From positions 1 through 42,365 of the forward strand of contig ML210383.1 of the NCBI GenBank assembly GCA_004369085.1: a stretch of DNA of 42,365 nt, read 5' to 3'. The notes under the pieces are model-generated. The model was not told the DNA's origin, made no database searches, and saw nothing but the letters and a program-made list of their open reading frames with translations. The translations under genes were made by a program, and so were the position numbers. Source of the DNA: Coprinopsis marcescibilis. Lineage: Eukaryota; Basidiomycota; Agaricomycetes; Agaricales; Psathyrellaceae. Numbering within the stretch: the first letter of the stretch is position 1; the number at the start of each line of letters is the position of its first letter. Positions 6,834 through 17,375 of the stretch are shown one piece after another.

Positions 6834-9800
6834 TCAGAACACCTCATTCTCCTTGGTCTTATTCAACCCCCTCACAACAGCGGAGGACAGCACCTTACGC
6901 TCGTCAAATTTCCTCAGAACCGGTGCAAACCCAGACGGATCTTTCCTCGCCTTGATCAGGCAAAGATCCGTAAACGCGACAGACCACGCGAATTTTCCTG
7001 TCGGGGCTACGCTGTAGGCGAAGGATGCCTTAATCTCCTCCAAATTCCCGAGAAGATGTATGTCCTGGATGGGTTGATGGTACGACATTGCTGGCGCCAA
7101 CATAATATCGTCCTGGTCCGTCTTTGAGGCGCTTCCTCCCCGGACTGGCTTTTTGCCTTGCTGCTCACTCCTTTCCCGTTTGGCTCGACTCTCACCAGCC
7201 TTGGTGTTAAACATTTCCTGGGAATCCCAGACATGTTTGCGCATGCGACCTAGTTCCTCGACCAGCATCGCGTGCACCGGCGAGAGATTTGGATTGACCT
7301 TCTTTAGGCTTTCAAGGTTATTGCAATACGTGGCGATTTTCTCGTACGGGGCGATGAGGTCCTTGTCCTTGGGTGGGTCCTTGTCGTCGACAAAGTTTGC
7401 TGCTTTCTGGAATTGCTTCTCCAGCTCAGCCCCGAATTTAGCTCCAGCAAGCTTCAAGTCTGCTAGTACTCCAAAAGGCTCAGGCTTTTTCCCAAACTCC
7501 TTTTTGTCCGCATTGAAGACCTCTTCACGTAATCGAAGGCCAGACTTGCTCGAGTCCAGCAATTCGTTGAATCTACATTTGCACAGAAATGTCAGGGTTG
7601 GTTGATATCGAAGGCTGGAGACCCACATATATGCCAGACGAATCGTGGTCGGATGGGAATATCCATACTTCTCCACAGCATGATCATGGAACATAGAGTA
7701 AAGACCGGTAGCCGAGGAACGCAAGTTCCCTAGAAGCACTTTCTGATATGCCTTTGCGGCCTCCCTATGACTGAGCCCTACAAGTCTGGTGCAGAACGCA
7801 GTCACAGTCTCTACGTCCTTTTCGAAGTTGTTCATCAGGTCGGGAGGTGGCGAAGAAAAGGGCTTGCTCTGGAAATTCTCCACTATTTCAGCTTCTCTGA
7901 ATATGTGCACCGTATCTAAAAAAGCCCCAGCTGAATCAGTAAACATAAACGGCCGCAACGCCCATAGTTCTCACCTCCGTCCATGTCTGGTTGCGGTACC
8001 AACAACAAAAGAAACATCAGTGGGTGCGGAGAAACAGATCTTCGAGTAGCTTACCGCCACCGCTCAGCAAACTTGCGAGGCTTCTTTCGCCTCGAACAGA
8101 CGCAATGATAACGTCCGTCCATTTCGATAATTCTGGGACATTGACTGCTCTGACCTGCAAGCAAATCAATGGGACGAAACACCTGCCACAGCATCCTACG
8201 CACCTTCTGAAGGTCTGAGGGAAGACGCATAGGGTACCTGCCAATCTAACTGTGAGTCAGCAACAGTGATCTCTTAAAAAAAACCCAGTCGTACCACGAC
8301 ATCCCCAGTGATAACCTCAAATGGTAGGCCCGTAATAGGATCTGTGAGAGACGCCGAAGATCGACAGAATATCTCTCCTTCTTTCAAAATCCCCAATGGA
8401 TCAGCTATTACGGTACCCGTTGGATGCTTCATAGGGTGGACCGCGAACGGATCTAGGCAGCCAGAGCGTCACGGTCTTATAATCGCTGTAAAACAGACAA
8501 GTTAACGTACCAGGGATGACGAACGCCCACAGTGACTCCTTCAACGGAATCCTATACTTCTCAATGGCCGCGTTCAAGGTATTAGCGGCAGCTCTCTTCA
8601 AGTAATCTCGCAACACTTTGTTCGTCTTCGGCTCGAATCCGGCTTGTAGCATATCCAGGATTGCCTCATACGTCGAATGCGGACCTGGCAAGATATTGCG
8701 GTTGGTTAGTTGGTCCTCACATCATGAAAAGTTGCAAGACGGACTTACACCCGCTATATGGGTTTCTACCAGTGTAGGTTGCAGGGCCTAGCTCGCCTGC
8801 TCCATCCCCGCCACTATCTTCGGTTGCTGCCACATCATCGTGTCTCCACTCTCCCCGAGATAGACCTAGGGCTCTACTCGCAGCATTGGCGATACGTGCC
8901 ATCCTTGCCCCGGAGACACCACCTGCCTTGTTCACCGCGTCAAGGAGCTTGATCGGGTCATCCCAATCCAATAAAGGGGCGACCTCCTCCCTCAACCCCT
9001 GCTCAAACAATTTGACCAACTTCTCTGGCGATACACCATTGTGGTATATGTTCAAGATACTTTGTTGAGTCAATGAGTCGCCCAGAGTAGGGTGTGACGG
9101 GGCAACGAGCTCGAAGATGCGGTGTGGACGGTCGAGCAGAGTGTTCTTGATCTTGTTTTGGGAGGCACGAATCCAGATGCGAGGCGTGGTTGAGTCGTCA
9201 GTGGGGTGGCGAACCCAGAGACCTTTGGCGCCATCAATACGTCCTTGCACTGCTGTAGGAGGGAATGAAGAGCCCATATGATCCCTGATGGCTTTGAGTG
9301 CAGCGTTGTTCATGAACCCGGCGCCGTCCGTCATAATCTTTTCCGTTGGTGCCTTGGCCAGCCCAGGGTGGGGAGCATCTAGGCGTCCATGTTACCCAAC
9401 GTATCTCCGGTTCAAAAATCATTCTTACATATGTCTTCGATGAAGAAAATTGAGTCCGGTGCAAATTCCAGGACTGGGACTGAATTGGACAGTCCCAAAG
9501 CATACCGTGTCACAAGTTTGCTGACAACCTATTCAAAGAGGCTCGTTAGTCAACAAACACAGCAAATCGAGTATAACATACTTGGTTATTGTTGAGCAAG
9601 AACGGATTATGCCATTCCATGAAGTCCACAAAACTCATTCGCCGCTCATCTGCACACCACCTCTGCGCCTTCCTTTCAAAATCTTCATCCGTCTCAACCA
9701 TATATGTCCCCCCGTCCTTTGAATGAAATGGGATGAACACCCTTCCCATCAAAACAAACTTTTGTGACAGGAATTCAATCACCGCGTCCTTTTCTTCCAT

Positions 9801-11420
9801 GACAAGCTTGTCGTTTATCTTTATCTGAATCACACGGCGTGATCCCAGAAATCTCGCATAACGATGCGATCTCCTACTCTCCATAGGCTCCAAAACGACT
9901 TTAAACTTGCTCTCGCTGGCCTTGTCTGGCCGTACGAGCCGCGCGATCTGTTGAATCTGTCCGCCATGCCAACTGGGTACACCTTCCCAAGTGCCCATCA
10001 ACCCCAGCCTACGTTCGGGACATTCTCTGGTCGCCTTCTCCTCCCGATCCAGCTCGCTCCACACGCCCAGAGGTGTAGAGCCTACTATTGATTCGTCGCG
10101 CAGAACCTGCGGAACTTTACATGCCACGTCCGCGTTGCTTCCCTTGAGTTTTGGGATTCCGGCGATTACATCGTCCCAAGTCCACAGTTCTTTGACCACG
10201 CCCCTGGCAATCTCCCATTGCACACCCCATTCAACCCTGGCGTCGTCGAGCAGGGATTGTGCATGCTGGTTATGTGCGATGATATTGGGGCAAAGGGCTC
10301 TACCTAGCGGTAGCTTCAGAAAAGCGCGGATAGTTGAGGTGGAATCCCCAGCCGGATGGCGGTTCTGGGAGAGGGTTTCGCTAATCTCAAGTTTTGAGAG
10401 ACAGAGTGTCAGTGATTCGACCTCGGCGTTGGTAGAACCAGCCTTCGCGATGGATGAGGGTGGCGAAGGGATGGGTGATGGGCTTGTGCTAGCTGTGTCA
10501 ACGCCTTCATCTCGCAAACTGGAGGTTGTCGACGCAGCATCGTCGAAACTGTCGGCCCCTGTATCAGCGTCGCTTTCGCTGCTTTCGAAATCGGAGTCGG
10601 AATCAGGGACGTTGTAGATCTTCTACAATCGGAGGTCAATACTCGGTAATCTTAATCATTCTCGGCAGAAGACGCATGTACCATGGGGACACTGGTGCTT
10701 CGAGGTGGGAATCTTCCCAAAGCAGAAGCAGATTGGGCTTGAGCTATTTATAGTAAGCCAGTCGATTTCTTTGACGAGTGAATAGAGAGACACATGCCTT
10801 TCTCCTTCTCGGGACTGTTCAACTTTTCAAGGGTTATTGCACGGATTGTCTGTGACACCTCGGGCGACAAAACAGTTCGAGTTCGGGCTCCACCAGTAGA
10901 AATTGGGGCAAGTGGTGGGCGTTGGAAATGGCTCGAGGCGCTTCCCGATGCAGCGGTCGATCTAACGGGAGAAGCAGAAGGGTTCGCTGACCCCATGCCC
11001 TTTGTTCTATTCACATAAGGGTTGGAACGCGGAATTGGCCGTCCACCAGACACACTGATGGAAGGCTCAATTTGAGCTGCCCGCAGTCGATTGGGTTTGG
11101 GCGTCGGTGATCCATGTTGGGCCGAGGCAAAAAGACAGCTACTAGGGCTAGGCTGCGACATCGACTTGGATGGTGTGGTCAATGCTTCATCTGGAGTAGA
11201 ATTGACTGTGAGCAATGGAAGAGGCAATCTATAAAACTGGCAACACTTACCAGACATTGTGGATATCGATTGCCACCATTCTGGATCACTCACTTCTGAG
11301 TAAGGATCGGTGTCGTCCTCGTAGCTTTCCGTCTGTGCTAGATTAGCTCAAAGGGAATCGAGTCAATGTGAAAGAAAAACCGACCACTTTAGACTTCCGG
11401 CTCTGACTCCTACGCGCCAT
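6834..11420 (-). CDS. RNA-dependent RNA polymerase 1 (QDE-1/RDR family)
   Basis: Eukaryotic cellular RdRP, which copies aberrant RNA into double-stranded RNA for Dicer. Exons, minus strand: 11420-11385, 11332-11251, 11205-10792, 10743-10682, 10622-9582, 9528-9429, 9378-8749, 8684-8511, 8404-8295, 8245-8204, 8154-8055, 7986-7975, 7915-7627, 7572-6834. They sum to 3831 nt, 1276 residues. Residues 1 to about 200 are Ser/Pro-rich and low complexity. The polymerase region follows: RRSHRYARFLGSRR, EKIMTDGAGF, the QGRIDGAKGLW loop, and SGG-DMDGD at 931-935, the metal-binding catalytic motif. DMDGD is encoded mostly by the 12-nt exon 7986-7975. The exon pair around 10792/10743 was chosen because it alone keeps frame, and its donor GTCTCT is weak. 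The gene shares a divergent promoter with centrin. The paralogue is at 13522-17375. Confidence 0.9.
7975..7986 (-). other. 12-nt microexon carrying the RdRP 1 catalytic motif
   Basis: Exon ACATGGACGGAG (minus strand) is flanked by acceptor AG (7988-7987) and donor GTGAGA (7974-7969). Both flanking introns are phase 1, so G|AC ATG GAC GGA G|AT reads D-M-D-G-D. Skipping it would keep the frame but delete four residues of the active site. Confidence 0.88.
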
Positions 11421-11874
11421 AAGGCGTTGGGTATGCTTTAATCAAGATAATGGTCAAGCCAAGGGGAGTATGGGTATCCAATCGCGAGAAACTTGGCCAG
11501 AAAGAAGGATGAAAGGGACAAGGTCGGTTTTGCCAAACAAGGCTCTTATAATCCGGTACTCATGGGTTACGGTAACGCAGCAGCAAACAGCAGAGATTGT
11601 CCACGATAGGACAGTAGTTCCAGGGCCAAAATTAAAAGGTCGACGAGTAAGGAATGTCCAGCTAGACACCATCATCACAGAAGGAACAGCAGTGACAGGG
11701 AGCAGAAACCCTAAAAGATCCGTGGTCAGTGCGTGAAAACCGCGACACTGCCACTGACAGCGCGTTTTGCGCGTGACCGTGCGCCAAGCCTTCCTCCAGT
11801 GTTGTTCGCCACCATCCCGCTCGTTGCGCGTCTCAGTCAATTATATGCAACGCCAGCCCCCAGCAGCCACTTCG
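11421..11874. promoter_or_regulatory. Shared divergent promoter of RdRP 1 and centrin
   Basis: About 450 bp separate the RdRP 1 start (11420, minus) from the centrin start (11875, or 11845, plus). The region therefore must hold the promoters of both genes. No TATA box is evident on either side. An in-frame open stretch reaches back to 11767 on the centrin side without an extra ATG before 11845. Confidence 0.55.
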
Positions 11875-12498
11875 ATGTACACATCCTCTGCAGCACAGCG
11901 TGCAAAACGTCGCACTCATAAGACTGAACTCACAGACGAGCAGAAGCAAGAAATAAAGGAAGCTTTTGAGCTGTTCGACACCGACAAGGATGGGGCCATC
12001 GACTACCACGAACTCAAAGTCGCCATGAGGGCCCTAGGATTTGATATGAAGAAAGCGGAGGTCTTGAAGATTCTCAGGGATCACGACAAGACTGGCCAGA
12101 ACCTAATGGATTTTGAAGATTTCGCGAAAGTTAGTGAGTATCATTTTCATTTCGCGTTTATCCTAGCTCTGGATCCTGAATAAGGTGCTAACAATGGACC
12201 ATAGTGAGCGATAAGATCCAAGCACGCGATCCAATAGAAGAAATGCGACGCGCATTCCACCTCTTCGACGACGATGGCACGGGTAAAATTAGCCTGCGCA
12301 ATCTCCGTCGCGTCGCAAAGGAGATTGGTGACAGATTAGAAGACGATGAATTGTACGTTCGGTGGACGCTTTCGGGGTATACACACTGACCCCCAATTCT
12401 CTGCTCACAGACAAGCTATGATAGACGAATTCGATTTGGACGGCGACGGCGAGATCAACGAACAAGAATTCCTTGCCATCATGACAGACGAAGCATAA
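11875..12498 (+). CDS. CDC31: Centrin, spindle-pole-body EF-hand protein
   Basis: Exons 11875-12133, 12205-12352 and 12411-12498 give 164 residues. Four EF-hands: loop 1 [12 protein letters not shown] at 35-46 is canonical; loop 2 around 69-80 is degenerate; loop 3 [12 protein letters not shown] at 108-119 has Asn in place of the last Glu; loop 4 [12 protein letters not shown] at 144-155 is canonical. The basic N-terminus ([10 protein letters not shown]) and the [13 protein letters not shown] segment mark centrin rather than calmodulin. In fungi centrin acts in spindle-pole-body duplication and with nuclear pore TREX-2 and XPC-type repair complexes. An in-frame ATG at 11845 would add ten residues; 11875 is preferred because the protein then begins as centrins usually do. 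It sits between the two polymerase genes but has no known link to silencing. Confidence 0.93.
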
Positions 12499-13521
12499 CG
12501 CGTGTGCTTTGGGTTGCGGCACCCTTCAATTGACCAGAAATGACATCTAATCTAACTGGACTCCATCATTCTCGCGCTTTTTCATCTTCATGGCCGCCCT
12601 TGTTGTACTTGACCCACCGTATCTTCTTGTTTAATCATCTCGCTGTGCCATTGCTGTCTCATTGTAGGTTCTCCTCCGATCCCACGATGAAAGATGTTGA
12701 CATCCTTACTACAGGTCTGTATCACGTTCTCAAATCTCATTCGCAACTGTATCGTTATTGCACTCTGAATCAAAACAAACACCCTCGCATTCTATCTGGG
12801 CCAACCGTTGATCACCTTGAGGAAACCATCCCCTAAACCGCCAGCTTTCTACACTCCTCGACCAACTTCGATGTTTGCTTGAATCCCACATGATCTTAAA
12901 ATACACTCGGTTCGACATGAGAACTTAGCCGTCACAATGACCAGCATGGTGCCAACACATTGCGGACTCAGACAGGTGTCCAACAGCTAACTGTCGATTC
13001 TCGAACCTTGGTTGTTCCTCCTATTCACAGTTTGTCAACTGTTTGCTTTGCTCGCTGCTTCCCGTTTCCACGCAGCTACGAGACTGTTCGCATGCTATAA
13101 GAGCACGATTGTCTGTTCCTTCCTCTTGTTCCTCGTAAGCCGTCAGGGGTGTACAGCCGCCTGGTACAGCCTGGTACAGCGCTCCCCTCAGTCCCAATTC
13201 ACAGTTTAGTCTCGGCGCCGCAGTTTGGAAAAGAGGTTCGTCTTTGACGTTGAATCACCAACAGCTTGTCGAAATTTGACCCCTATCGAACTACAGAGAC
13301 CTCCAGACTATAGCCCGGTTTGGTGCAAACCGACAGTGGAGAAATGCCTCGTGAGCTTTCTATTACTTGTGGGCGACATTTTAAGGCTCTGAACTGATCG
13401 TCGCTGGTTAACTTGCTGTTCAGACAACGAACATAGCGTTCCCCTGCAGGACAGGAACGCGGATCCAATTTCAACGCGCCTCCATTGGTCACAAATTCTG
13501 TTATATGGAGGCCGACGGAAC
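12499..13521. other. Intergenic between centrin and RdRP 2
   Basis: About 1 kb without a convincing gene. It holds the centrin 3' end, a small direct repeat at 13161-13180 and the presumed RdRP 2 promoter. I looked for exons matching the N-terminal extension of RdRP 1 and saw none. The frame of RdRP 2 is open back to 13393 but without another ATG. Confidence 0.5.
13161..13180. repeat. Two perfect tandem copies of a 10-bp unit
   Basis: CTGGTACAGC occurs twice head-to-tail, preceded by a partial third copy (GTACAGCC, from 13151). It lies about 340 bp before the RdRP 2 start codon. Function unknown. Confidence 0.6.
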
Positions 13522-16500
13522 ATGCATCGGGCTACTTCTCCAACTATCGAGTCTACCTCTGCCTCGGTATTTGGACCAGATAATGCTGTGGACGTTGGGG
13601 TTGGGAGTACTCAACACGCGAATTCCCAACTCCCCGTCTCAGTTTTTTTCTCCCAAAGTCCCCCCTCAGTCTTGTCCCCGGATGTGCTGCGCACGATACG
13701 CATTGCAACTCAGGCCCACGCGGACGATGACGACAGCAACGATGTAGATGCGGACGCAGCCACCAATCGGTCGGATACGCCCGACGCCGACAAAGACGGT
13801 GATACAGAACTGGCACCCATCCTCTCAAAGCTACAGATCGCGGATGGTCTTCAAGTGCCCCCTCAGTCCTTCAATAACAATCCGGACATTGCCTACATTC
13901 ATCAATTCCTCGGCAAGCCACTTGGAATCGCACTCGAAGCACATATTATTGCCCATAACAGTGATGTGCAAACGGTACTGGACGAATACAAGATTGAATG
14001 GGGGGTTCAATGGGAGCTGGCTCGAGGGTTGATGAAGGAACCAAGTCTATGGACGTGGGATGACATCCGTGAACGCATTCCCGATCTCGTCGGATCCAAC
14101 GCCGAGAAAGCGGGGCAGGTTGGGCACATTATGGGGAGAGCAAGGCATGGAACGACTGCTATGAGTGTCTGGAGGGAGCTGGATCGGGAGGAAAAAGCTA
14201 CCCGAGAGGACCCCGATCGTCGTCTAGGCCTTAGGGGCGCATGGGAAGGAGATCCTAACTGGCATGGAGGACAGATTCAGCAATTGGCCAGGCTCGTCAA
14301 GAGGTGCCCGAGGACGTCCCAACCTATGGGACCCAAGTATAAAATTCTCCTTGAACCGATGGAGAAACGAAGGTCCCATCGTTTTGCTAGGTATCTTGGG
14401 TCTCGAAGGATTTTGCAAGTTCGTATCAATGACGATTTGGTTATGAAGGAGAAGGCGGATGTGGTTGCATTTTTGTCGCGAAAGTTTGTGTTATTCGGGA
14501 GGATGTTCGTGCCGTTCCACTCGAAGGATGAAAGCGTCTACATGGTTGAAACCAACGAGGATTTTGGAGGGAGGGTACCTCGTGATTGGTGCGCCGACCG
14601 TCAGAGGCTTAGCTTTGTGGAATTTTTGGAATGGCATAATCCCTTGGAGCATAATGGCATGCAGGCAAGTCAATTTCATTGGCCCTTGCTACAGAATATG
14701 TTGATCGATCTTCGGTTGTGAACCAGGCCATCAGTAAATGCGTGACCAGGTATGCGTTGGGTCTCTCAAACTCGATACCTGTCGTGGAATTTGAGCGAGA
14801 TTGCATTTATTTCATTGACGATATATGTAGGTCCTCGTCCCCATCTTCCCTGCTATATTACTAATTTCGAGCTGTAGATTCAAGTGATTGGCGACCTGGC
14901 CAGCCCAAGCCAGCTGAGAAGATCATGACGGATGGTTGTGGATTTATCAATCTCGCCGGTCTCAAGGCAATAACCAAGCAAATGGCGTACGAATACCTCC
15001 CCACTGCAGTGCAAGGTCGGATAGACGGAGCCAAGGGTCTGTGGGTGCGCCACCCAACAGACGAAGATCTCGACACGCCGCGGATCTGGATCCGCGCTTC
15101 CCAGAACAAAATTAAAAACCCCCGACTTGACCGTGCCCATAGGATATTCGAACTGGTGGCCCCCTCCAGGCCGTCCACGGGCAGCTCGATATCTCAGCAA
15201 AGCATTCTCAACCTACATTTCAATAATGTGAAGGCGGAAAATATGATCAAGCTGTTTGAGGAAGCGCTGAGGGAGGAAGTTGGTCCGCTTTTGGATTGGG
15301 GTGATAGCATCAGGTTGTACCATGCAGTTAACAAGGTGGGAGGTGTTGCTGGTTCCAGGGCTGTGAGGATTGCAAGTAGTAGGGGAAGAGCTATGGGGCT
15401 TACCAGGCCTACGTGGCAGCATGAGCACGTCGAGGCGACGGAGGAGTCTCAGAGTCAGAGCCAGGCTGTTTCACTCGCGGAGGACGTTGGGCCTGCGACA
15501 TATACGGGTAGAAATCCGTACAGTGGAGGTAAGTCGCGTGAGGAAGTTTATTGACTCCAACTGACATTTTTCTTTTCTCTCTTTCAGCTCCGCATGGGAT
15601 TTCCGAAAAGATCATGGAAATGCTGCAGGCCGGCTTCAATGTGACCGAGAACAAATTGTTGCGGGACGATACTATGAAATTGATCGATATCACTCTAAAT
15701 ACTGCGATTGAGAACTGTCGCATTCCCTTGAAGGAATCAATCAACGCCTTCATTATTCCTGGTACGCTCCCTTTGTTAATCCCTAGAAAGTTGATTGATG
15801 TCCATTGGCAGATCCACTGGGTATACTTGAAGAAGGGCAGATTTACTATCGTTCATCCCAACCAATGAAGAATCCTCGCACGGAAATGATGTTTGACGTT
15901 ATTATGGGAAAGGTTGTGGTCGGAAGGTCAGTGACAGTGACTAATGTATGCACAGATAACTGACTTTAACACCCAGGTATCCTATGCATCTTCCTTCGGA
16001 CTTGCAGAAGGTAGAGGGGAAAGCTTTTGATTGCCGAAACAATGTCAAATCTTTCTTCTTCAGGTCGAAGCTGTGGACAGGCGCGAGCTCTCTGGGTGGA
16101 CGGATGTCGTGATAGCTTCCGTCAAAGGTGAACGCAGCCTTGCTAGTTTGCTTAGCGGCGGTGGTAAGTCCAGTGTCAATAGGACTTTACCTTCGGTTGG
16201 ACTGATGGGCTTGTTTTTGAACAGATATGGACGGAGGTTGTTCTTCCATCCATCCATTGTGATTCTTATTAACTGGCGGTGTTTTTTAGACACGGTGGAC
16301 ATCTACAGAGAAGCTGAAATCGTTGAAAATTTCACAGGCCAGCTGTTTACCGAATCTCCACCAGATCTAGGGCACAACTTCCAAGAAAATGTTCAGACTG
16401 TCATCCGGTTCTGTCGTGAACATGCTACTGCCCCTCCTGACGTCTCGGCGAGGCTATATCAGGGTATTCTCATCGGAAACCTCAAATCCAACTTGACAGG

Positions 16501-17375
16501 GTTATACTCGACCTTCCATGACAAGTGTGTCGCTAACAACGGTTATGACCATAAAGAATCAATTCGGCTTGCTTATATGTGAGGATTATATCGCTTTGCA
16601 TTCTGTAACCTGCAAACTGATTACGCCCCTACCCCGCAGTTTCAATACCCTGGTTGACGCAGCAAAGTCTGGTCTTCAGCTGAAGGATGAGGTTTATCAA
16701 AGTGACAACGCCAGGTGGAAGGGACAAAGCAAAGTATTTCCCGTGGTAGAGGAGCTAAGAACGGCTGGTAGGCGAATATCCGCGGAACTACAAGACAGGT
16801 TTCAGGATCTATGCCAGACCCATGTTCAATACCGCAGGGATAAAGACCTTCTGGAACCTTATACAATGGCAAGGACGTACCTCCAGAAGCTCATCGAGGC
16901 TAAGCACCCAGCATACAAAATGTTCGACTTCGAGATGGACCTTATTTGCGCCCGCGTTGACGACGTGAAAGCTCTTTTCGCAAAGGCCTATCGGCAATAC
17001 CTCGAGAAGAAAGAGAAAGAGGCACATATGGCGAGGACCGGGGGCAAGAAGAAGAAGAAGAGAACTGAGCGCAAAGCGGACCAGGAAGACGTTATGTTGG
17101 CGCCGTCCAAGCTGTACATGGAAGATATCCCGGGTATCGTTTTGACGAGGAACGTGGAAGAGGTGAAGGCATCGTATGCGTATCATCTGGCCACGGAATA
17201 CAACAATGAGGCGTCATTCCCATATTCCATGGCATTCCGAACGATCTGCCTCATGAAGGCGAAGGCACAATCAGTGGGCTTTGCACCAGTGTTGCATAAC
17301 TTCGACGAGTGCAAAAATCTTTCAAGCGCGGCTGTCAGGGCGTTGGCCAGAAGTGGAGACGAAGACGTTTTCTGA
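13522..17375 (+). CDS. RNA-dependent RNA polymerase 2 (QDE-1/RDR family)
   Basis: Paralogue of the polymerase on the opposite strand. Exons 13522-14664, 14727-14826, 14878-15528, 15588-15761, 15812-15926, 15977-16010, 16064-16163, 16225-16236, 16290-16578 and 16640-17375 sum to 3354 nt, 1117 residues. Visible family features: RRSHRFARYLGSRR, a FVPFHSKD segment, EKIMTDGCGF, QGRIDGAKGLW, DPLGILEEGQ, and SGG-DMDGD at 773-777. The aspartates of DMDGD bind the catalytic metal in this family. The first intron has a GC donor (CAG|GCAAGT). The N-terminus is about 100 residues shorter than that of RdRP 1, an acidic Asp-rich stretch follows, and upstream exons cannot be excluded. A Lys-rich KKKKKR tract lies near the C-terminal third. 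The gene looks intact and catalytically competent. Confidence 0.92.
14665..14726 (+). other. GC-AG intron in RdRP 2
   Basis: Donor CAG|GCAAGT and acceptor ACCAG frame a 62-bp phase-0 intron. The matching intron in RdRP 1 (9581-9529) has a normal GTATGT donor at the same codon. The only nearby GT (GTCAAT) would break the frame. Confidence 0.8.
16225..16236 (+). other. 12-nt microexon carrying the RdRP 2 catalytic motif
   Basis: ATATGGACGGAG lies between acceptor ACAG (to 16224) and donor GTTGTT (from 16237); both introns are phase 1. Spliced reading is G|AT ATG GAC GGA G|AC, D-M-D-G-D. Same length, phase and position as in RdRP 1. Confidence 0.88.

What the first reader, a model, noticed from the sequence alone, without database searches (positions are those of the whole stretch)
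7975..7986. Catalytic DMDGD of both polymerases sits on a 12-nt microexon
In both genes the metal-binding motif is split over three exons, its core coded by a 12-nt exon between two phase-1 introns (also 16225-16236). Skipping is frame-preserving, so one splicing choice would switch between an active polymerase and a full-length, catalytically dead one. That is a plausible regulatory switch. Microexons of this size are also easily missed by gene predictors, which would make such genes look inactive.
Basis: partly seen in the sequence, partly recalled or inferred. Interest (0 to 1): 0.8.

Follow-up and report, generated by a model that had tools for sequence, protein, structure and literature searches.

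The report
Polymerase active site on a microexon
In two neighbouring RNA polymerase genes of a mushroom, the few amino acids that do the chemistry are encoded by an exon only 12 bases long, which gene-finding programs seem to miss often, so that some relatives in databases look like dead enzymes when they probably are not.

Summary
Confirmed at the stated coordinates. Both genes are cellular RdRPs of Coprinopsis marcescibilis. In each, DMDGD is completed by a 12-nt exon between two phase-1 introns; every in-frame splicing found that yields DxDGD uses this exon. The two genes are saturated at synonymous sites and most introns match no better than shuffled sequence, yet the microexons differ at one synonymous base.

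The warning about predictors holds. The deposited gene B protein lacks the motif; gene A's has it. Of 201 listed clade proteins, 38 lack exactly four residues there (DxDG), in seven orders of Agaricomycetes; of 120 listed proteins of a paralogue clade with uninterrupted motif, all keep it. This suggests an old, widely shared microexon, inferred from proteins only.

The splicing switch is possible but has no direct support. A skip needs a 126- or 139-nt intron; the 18 modelled introns are 49-68 nt. In another mushroom, coding exon skipping was 1% of events in one analysis but 1,527 events in a second (PMC5034255). Best reading: a constitutively spliced conserved microexon. No RNA was examined.

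The parts
7975..7986 (-). 12-nt microexon of gene A (ACATGGACGGAG); with the flanking G and AT it encodes DMDGD
7987..8054 (-). upstream flanking intron of gene A, 68 nt, phase 1, GTAAGC...CAG
7916..7974 (-). downstream flanking intron of gene A, 59 nt, phase 1, GTGAGA...TAG
6834..10622 (-). gene A, RdRP (PF05183), 9 introns modelled from the stop-to-stop frame that begins at 10622; any exons further 5' not modelled; deposited as FA15DRAFT_243960 with the motif present
16225..16236 (+). 12-nt microexon of gene B (ATATGGACGGAG); encodes DMDGD with its flanks
16164..16224 (+). upstream flanking intron of gene B, 61 nt, phase 1, GTAAGT...CAG
16237..16289 (+). downstream flanking intron of gene B, 53 nt, phase 1, unusual donor GTTGTT, ...TAG
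13522..17375 (+). gene B, RdRP (PF05183), 9 introns; deposited as FA15DRAFT_649270 without the catalytic motif

Best explanation
The 12-nt exon is an old, constitutively included microexon of one clade of Agaricomycete cellular RdRPs. The short introns on either side are each recognised across the intron, so the 12-nt exon needs no recognition of its own. Removing both restores the metal-binding loop DxDGD and hence an active polymerase, presumably in RNA silencing. Database proteins that lack exactly DxDG are mostly products of gene models that missed the exon. Shown: the exon, its phases, that it is the only route found to the motif, its conservation between the two genes, and the clade-specific pattern of missing DxDG. 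Inferred: constitutive inclusion, recognition across introns, presence of the exon in the DNA of other species, and polymerase function.
For: Exon structure and phases. Only route found to DxDGD. PF05183 at 298.1 and 314.4 bits against a cut-off of 23.8. Alignment to QDE-1. Microexons 11 of 12 identical, the difference synonymous, at saturated synonymous divergence. Exact four-residue loss in 38 of 201 listed clade proteins and 0 of 120 listed controls, Fisher p 8e-9. Among 91 core columns with at least 90% identity, the two microexon Asp columns are the most often missing (20% and 21%), against a median of 0 for the columns outside the motif. Trametes sanguinea P0131, without the motif, agrees with T. 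coccinea P0132 at 1065 of 1161 aligned positions; the only gaps are 82 residues and four residues that can be placed as DYDG. Five models read on into a donor as GGGK, and two Russula models carry an in-frame insert that ends just before DYDGD, as a phase-1 intron at the same place would give. Both C. cinerea entries listed keep DMDGD, as does the deposited gene A protein.
Against: No RNA evidence was examined. Some of the 38 models could reflect real skipped transcripts; a junction-based count in Schizophyllum commune found 1,527 skipping events inside coding regions (PMC5034255). Gene B's second donor (GTTGTT) is unusual, so inclusion may be inefficient there. The exon could not be seen in the DNA of any other species.
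Confidence: 0.82

Rival explanations
1. Regulated splicing switch: under some condition the microexon is skipped, giving a full-length, catalytically dead RdRP that competes with the active one.
For: Skipping preserves frame in both genes. 38 of 201 listed clade proteins have exactly the skipped form. A microexon switch is reported in Trichoderma Xlr2 (PMC11121469). Coding exon skipping is not negligible in a junction-based count in S. commune (1,527 events).
Against: The skip intron would be 139 or 126 nt, against 49-68 nt for the 18 introns modelled. The transcript-based count in S. commune put coding exon skipping at 1% of events. In Xlr2 no reads joined the exons across the microexon, so even that switch is not a simple skip. 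Closely related proteins are annotated both ways, which annotation error explains more simply.
Confidence: 0.08
2. Control by intron retention: inefficient removal of a flanking intron yields a stop codon and lowers the amount of polymerase.
For: Retention of either intron in A and of intron 2 in B runs into a stop; retention of intron 1 in B shifts the frame to a stop. Intron retention was 43% of coding events in the transcript-based count of S. commune, and introns beside plant microexons are more often detained (PMC8831610, passages).
Against: No RNA data. In B, retention of both introns leaves an open frame without the motif, so the outcome is not uniform.
Confidence: 0.07
3. Gene B is truly inactive, as the deposited model says, because its microexon is no longer used.
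For: The deposited gene B protein lacks DMDGD; its second donor is GTTGTT.
Against: The motif is intact and flanked by AG and GT, and non-synonymous divergence (0.38) is far below the saturated synonymous divergence. A retrocopy fragment suggests that gene B has been transcribed and spliced at another intron.
Confidence: 0.03

Closest known systems
Conserved microexons of plants missed by annotation (PMC8831610; abstract and passages seen)
   Same: Exons of 15 nt or less, conserved over long times, called crucial for gene function, and mostly absent from reference annotations.
   Different: Plants, found with RNA-seq; here one fungal enzyme clade, found from sequence, with the catalytic loop itself on the exon.
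Xlr2 microexon switch of Trichoderma (PMC11121469; abstract and section 2.4 seen)
   Same: A fungal microexon coding part of an essential motif, conserved in a genus and missing from JGI models.
   Different: 20 nt, in a transcription factor, and regulated by glucose; here 12 nt, a polymerase active site, and no evidence of regulation.
QDE-1 cellular RdRP of Neurospora crassa (PDB 2j7n; PMC1750930, passages seen)
   Same: Homologous core and DxDGD loop.
   Different: Ascomycete enzyme; its gene structure at the motif was not examined.
P450 microexons of Phanerochaete chrysosporium (PMC1184071; passages seen)
   Same: A basidiomycete with many exons coding 2-10 residues.
   Different: Spread over a gene superfamily; the passages seen say nothing of a catalytic motif or of conservation across orders.
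Codon-sized alternatively spliced microexons of the nank family in Tuber melanosporum (cited in PMC4986451; one passage seen)
   Same: Very short fungal exons.
   Different: Alternatively spliced to diversify a protein family; not examined further.

Membership tests
Cellular RdRP (PF05183, QDE-1-like) | Pfam RdRP domain over the curated cut-off | tested here: met
   298.1 and 314.4 bits against 23.8
Cellular RdRP (PF05183, QDE-1-like) | DxDGD metal-binding loop in the spliced product | tested here: met
   DMDGD if the microexon is included; aligned to QDE-1 DYDGD
Cellular RdRP (PF05183, QDE-1-like) | RNA polymerase activity and role in silencing | not testable with these tools
   needs biochemistry or genetics
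Conserved microexon | Exon of 15 nt or less with GT-AG flanks | tested here: met
   12 nt, both genes
Conserved microexon | Inclusion in mature transcripts | not testable with these tools
   no RNA data held; only deposited models that include it
Conserved microexon | Conservation across species at the DNA level | tested here: inconclusive
   Inferred from proteins only; scans of viral contigs and genome contigs gave no relatives
Regulated microexon switch | Both included and skipped transcripts, changing with condition | not testable with these tools
   no RNA data held
Regulated microexon switch | Frame preserved on skipping | tested here: met
   both genes

The most novel reading that the evidence does not exclude
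An RNA-silencing polymerase clade throughout the Agaricomycetes carries its catalytic loop on a 12-nt cassette exon, kept in 1-1 phase over a long evolutionary time because controlled skipping makes a full-length dead polymerase that damps RNA silencing.
Probability: 0.08. Interest if true: 0.85.

Novelty: new member of a known kind. Interest (0 to 1): 0.55.

Why it matters
About a quarter of the listed proteins of this RdRP clade have no D.DGD motif (54 of 201), most of them through loss of exactly four residues. If these are annotation errors, surveys that count active RdRPs of mushrooms from protein sets would miscount, and a study expressing such a model would test a dead enzyme. The case is also a clean test for gene predictors and for how fungal spliceosomes handle very short exons.

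Tried and rejected
Retrocopies that would record the junction: 201-nt included-junction sequences of A and B matched only the two neighbouring exons of the same gene. DNA of other fungi: the search for related loci with P0003 in viral contigs and with alignment A1 in viral contigs and genome contigs gave no relatives. The PDB search with the C-terminal exon alone gave no RdRP; the full gene B model did. A first regex count of motif loss was replaced by alignment-based classes, because the regex missed variants such as ADGDMDGD. In one search the automatic label for controls read 'other' for all 120, because the segment carried extra residues; one search recounted 120 of 120 with [GA]GGDLDGD. 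Two trial donors for L034 were wrong; one search found the GT donor that gives AGGDYDGD. No printed record of this microexon appeared in the listings of ten library searches, of which I opened passages of a few papers only. A C. cinerea long-read annotation that lists microexons is recalled; two searches with C. cinerea and microexons did not bring it and nothing of it was read.

Full report
Observation. In gene A (minus strand) the 12-nt exon is 7986-7975 and in gene B (plus strand) 16225-16236. Each lies between two phase-1 introns of 68 and 59 nt (A) or 61 and 53 nt (B). The last G of the upstream exon, the 12-mer and the first two bases of the downstream exon read DMDGD. In-frame, stop-free splicings between fixed anchors were enumerated (GT-AG, introns of 40 nt or more, at most two); two forms per gene contain DxDGD and both use this 12-nt exon. 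In shuffles of the two regions such an exon arose in 9 and 4 of 200,000.

Identity. The window belongs to Coprinopsis marcescibilis: P0001 (gene B) and P0003 (gene A) are deposited under that name with a longest contig of 42,365 bases, the window's length; the order is Agaricales. P0003 equals my gene A model plus an initial Met, and P0001 differs from my gene B model only by a 12-residue insert at intron 1 and at the motif. Both models are PF05183 RdRPs, and the motif aligns with the QDE-1 loop in which three aspartates coordinate Mg2+ (PMC1750930, passages). Skipping leaves SGGDTV, one of the three aspartates, so the product would be expected to be inactive; this is inference.

Selection. 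Between A and B, 574 residues are identical over 1030 aligned codons; pS is 0.80 (saturated) and dN 0.38. The nine intron pairs score near shuffled sequence; intron 8, just downstream of the microexon, is the highest (0.75 against 0.62). The microexons differ only at a synonymous GAC/GAT base.

Other RdRP genes of the genome. The PF05183 search gave 29 matches that I group into nine loci, a lower bound. Eight hold the motif region. A and B have the microexon. Three have the motif in one open frame (L030, L032, L035). Two have one intron inside the Gly codon before the last Asp (L031 phase 2, L033 phase 1). One has an intron in the Gly codon just before the first Asp (L034, phase 1, 47 nt). The ninth (L036) is a fragment without this part.

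Relatives. Two protein searches listed their best 120 of 191 and of 222 hits, 201 distinct proteins in all, which include the two entries of the window itself. By alignment, 144 have a segment ending in DxDGD, 38 lack exactly four residues (DxDG), and 19 differ otherwise. The 38 fall in seven orders by my assignment: 13 Agaricales, 11 Boletales, 10 Polyporales, and one each of Amylocorticiales, Jaapiales, Gloeophyllales and Hymenochaetales. The last four were looked up; the others are from general knowledge. The 19 others are mixed: five read on as GGGK, several are substitutions or other lengths, and one (P0194) has no residues in the segment. Two Russula models among the 144 carry an in-frame insert before DYDGD, as a retained upstream intron would give (order). 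As a control, the best 120 of 1225 hits of the C1 paralogue, whose motif is uninterrupted in this genome, all keep [GA]GGDLDGD. Loss of exactly four residues is 38 of 201 against 0 of 120 (p 8e-9). The proteins are related by descent, so the p-value overstates independence.

A position-specific gap. Over the core, 91 columns have at least 90% identity; the two microexon aspartates are the most often missing, at 20% and 21%, against a median of 0 for conserved columns outside the motif. Exact four-residue gaps also occur elsewhere: 16 at position 607 and 7 at 597, against 38 at 770-772. The stretch 597-615 is poorly conserved and gappy. P0131 and P0132 agree at 1065 of 1161 aligned positions; the only gaps are 82 residues and four residues that can be placed as DYDG. 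The gene B entry of this genome lacks the motif, while gene A was modelled with it.

Mechanism. The 18 modelled introns are 49-68 nt, which suits recognition across introns, where no minimum exon size is needed (established knowledge, not tested). A skip would require an intron of 126 or 139 nt. [quoted passage not shown] Skipping in coding regions is thus uncommon but not absent. Retention of one flanking intron gives a stop in each case, directly or after a frameshift; retention of both is stopped in A and open in B. A microexon switch is reported in Trichoderma Xlr2, where no reads joined the exons across the microexon (PMC11121469, abstract and section 2.4). The switch is therefore not excluded.

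Limits. No transcripts and no DNA of other fungi could be read. Conservation of the exon outside this genome is inferred from protein models. Whether the 38 forms are errors or real isoforms is judged here on plausibility, not on RNA.

Noticed in passing
L036:3033-4280 (G000 C405); window 11801-12771 and 14875-15339: A chimeric, apparently processed copy: a gene B fragment (98.3% identical over 466 bases, with 12 bases of the preceding exon joined directly across the intron 14827-14877) lies next to a copy of the EF-hand (centrin- or calmodulin-like, name recalled) gene between the two RdRPs, which lacks three stretches of 66, 58 and 49 bases that look like introns.
   Followed up: partly
window 14665-14726: Gene B intron 1 appears to use a GC donor (GC-AG); the deposited model P0001 has a 12-residue insert there instead.
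   Followed up: partly
window 8246-8294 and 15927-15976: Intron 5 lies at different phases in the two genes (phase 0 in A, phase 2 in B), a few bases apart, as after intron sliding.
   Followed up: no
L031, L033, L034: Three other RdRP genes of the genome have single introns within or beside the DxDGD codons, 2-3 bases from the positions of the microexon's introns; the Gly-rich motif may be prone to introns.
   Followed up: partly
P0141, P0146: RdRP entries of two Ganoderma species read AGADYNGD and SEDYDGA at the motif, perhaps truly degenerate or wrongly modelled.
   Followed up: no
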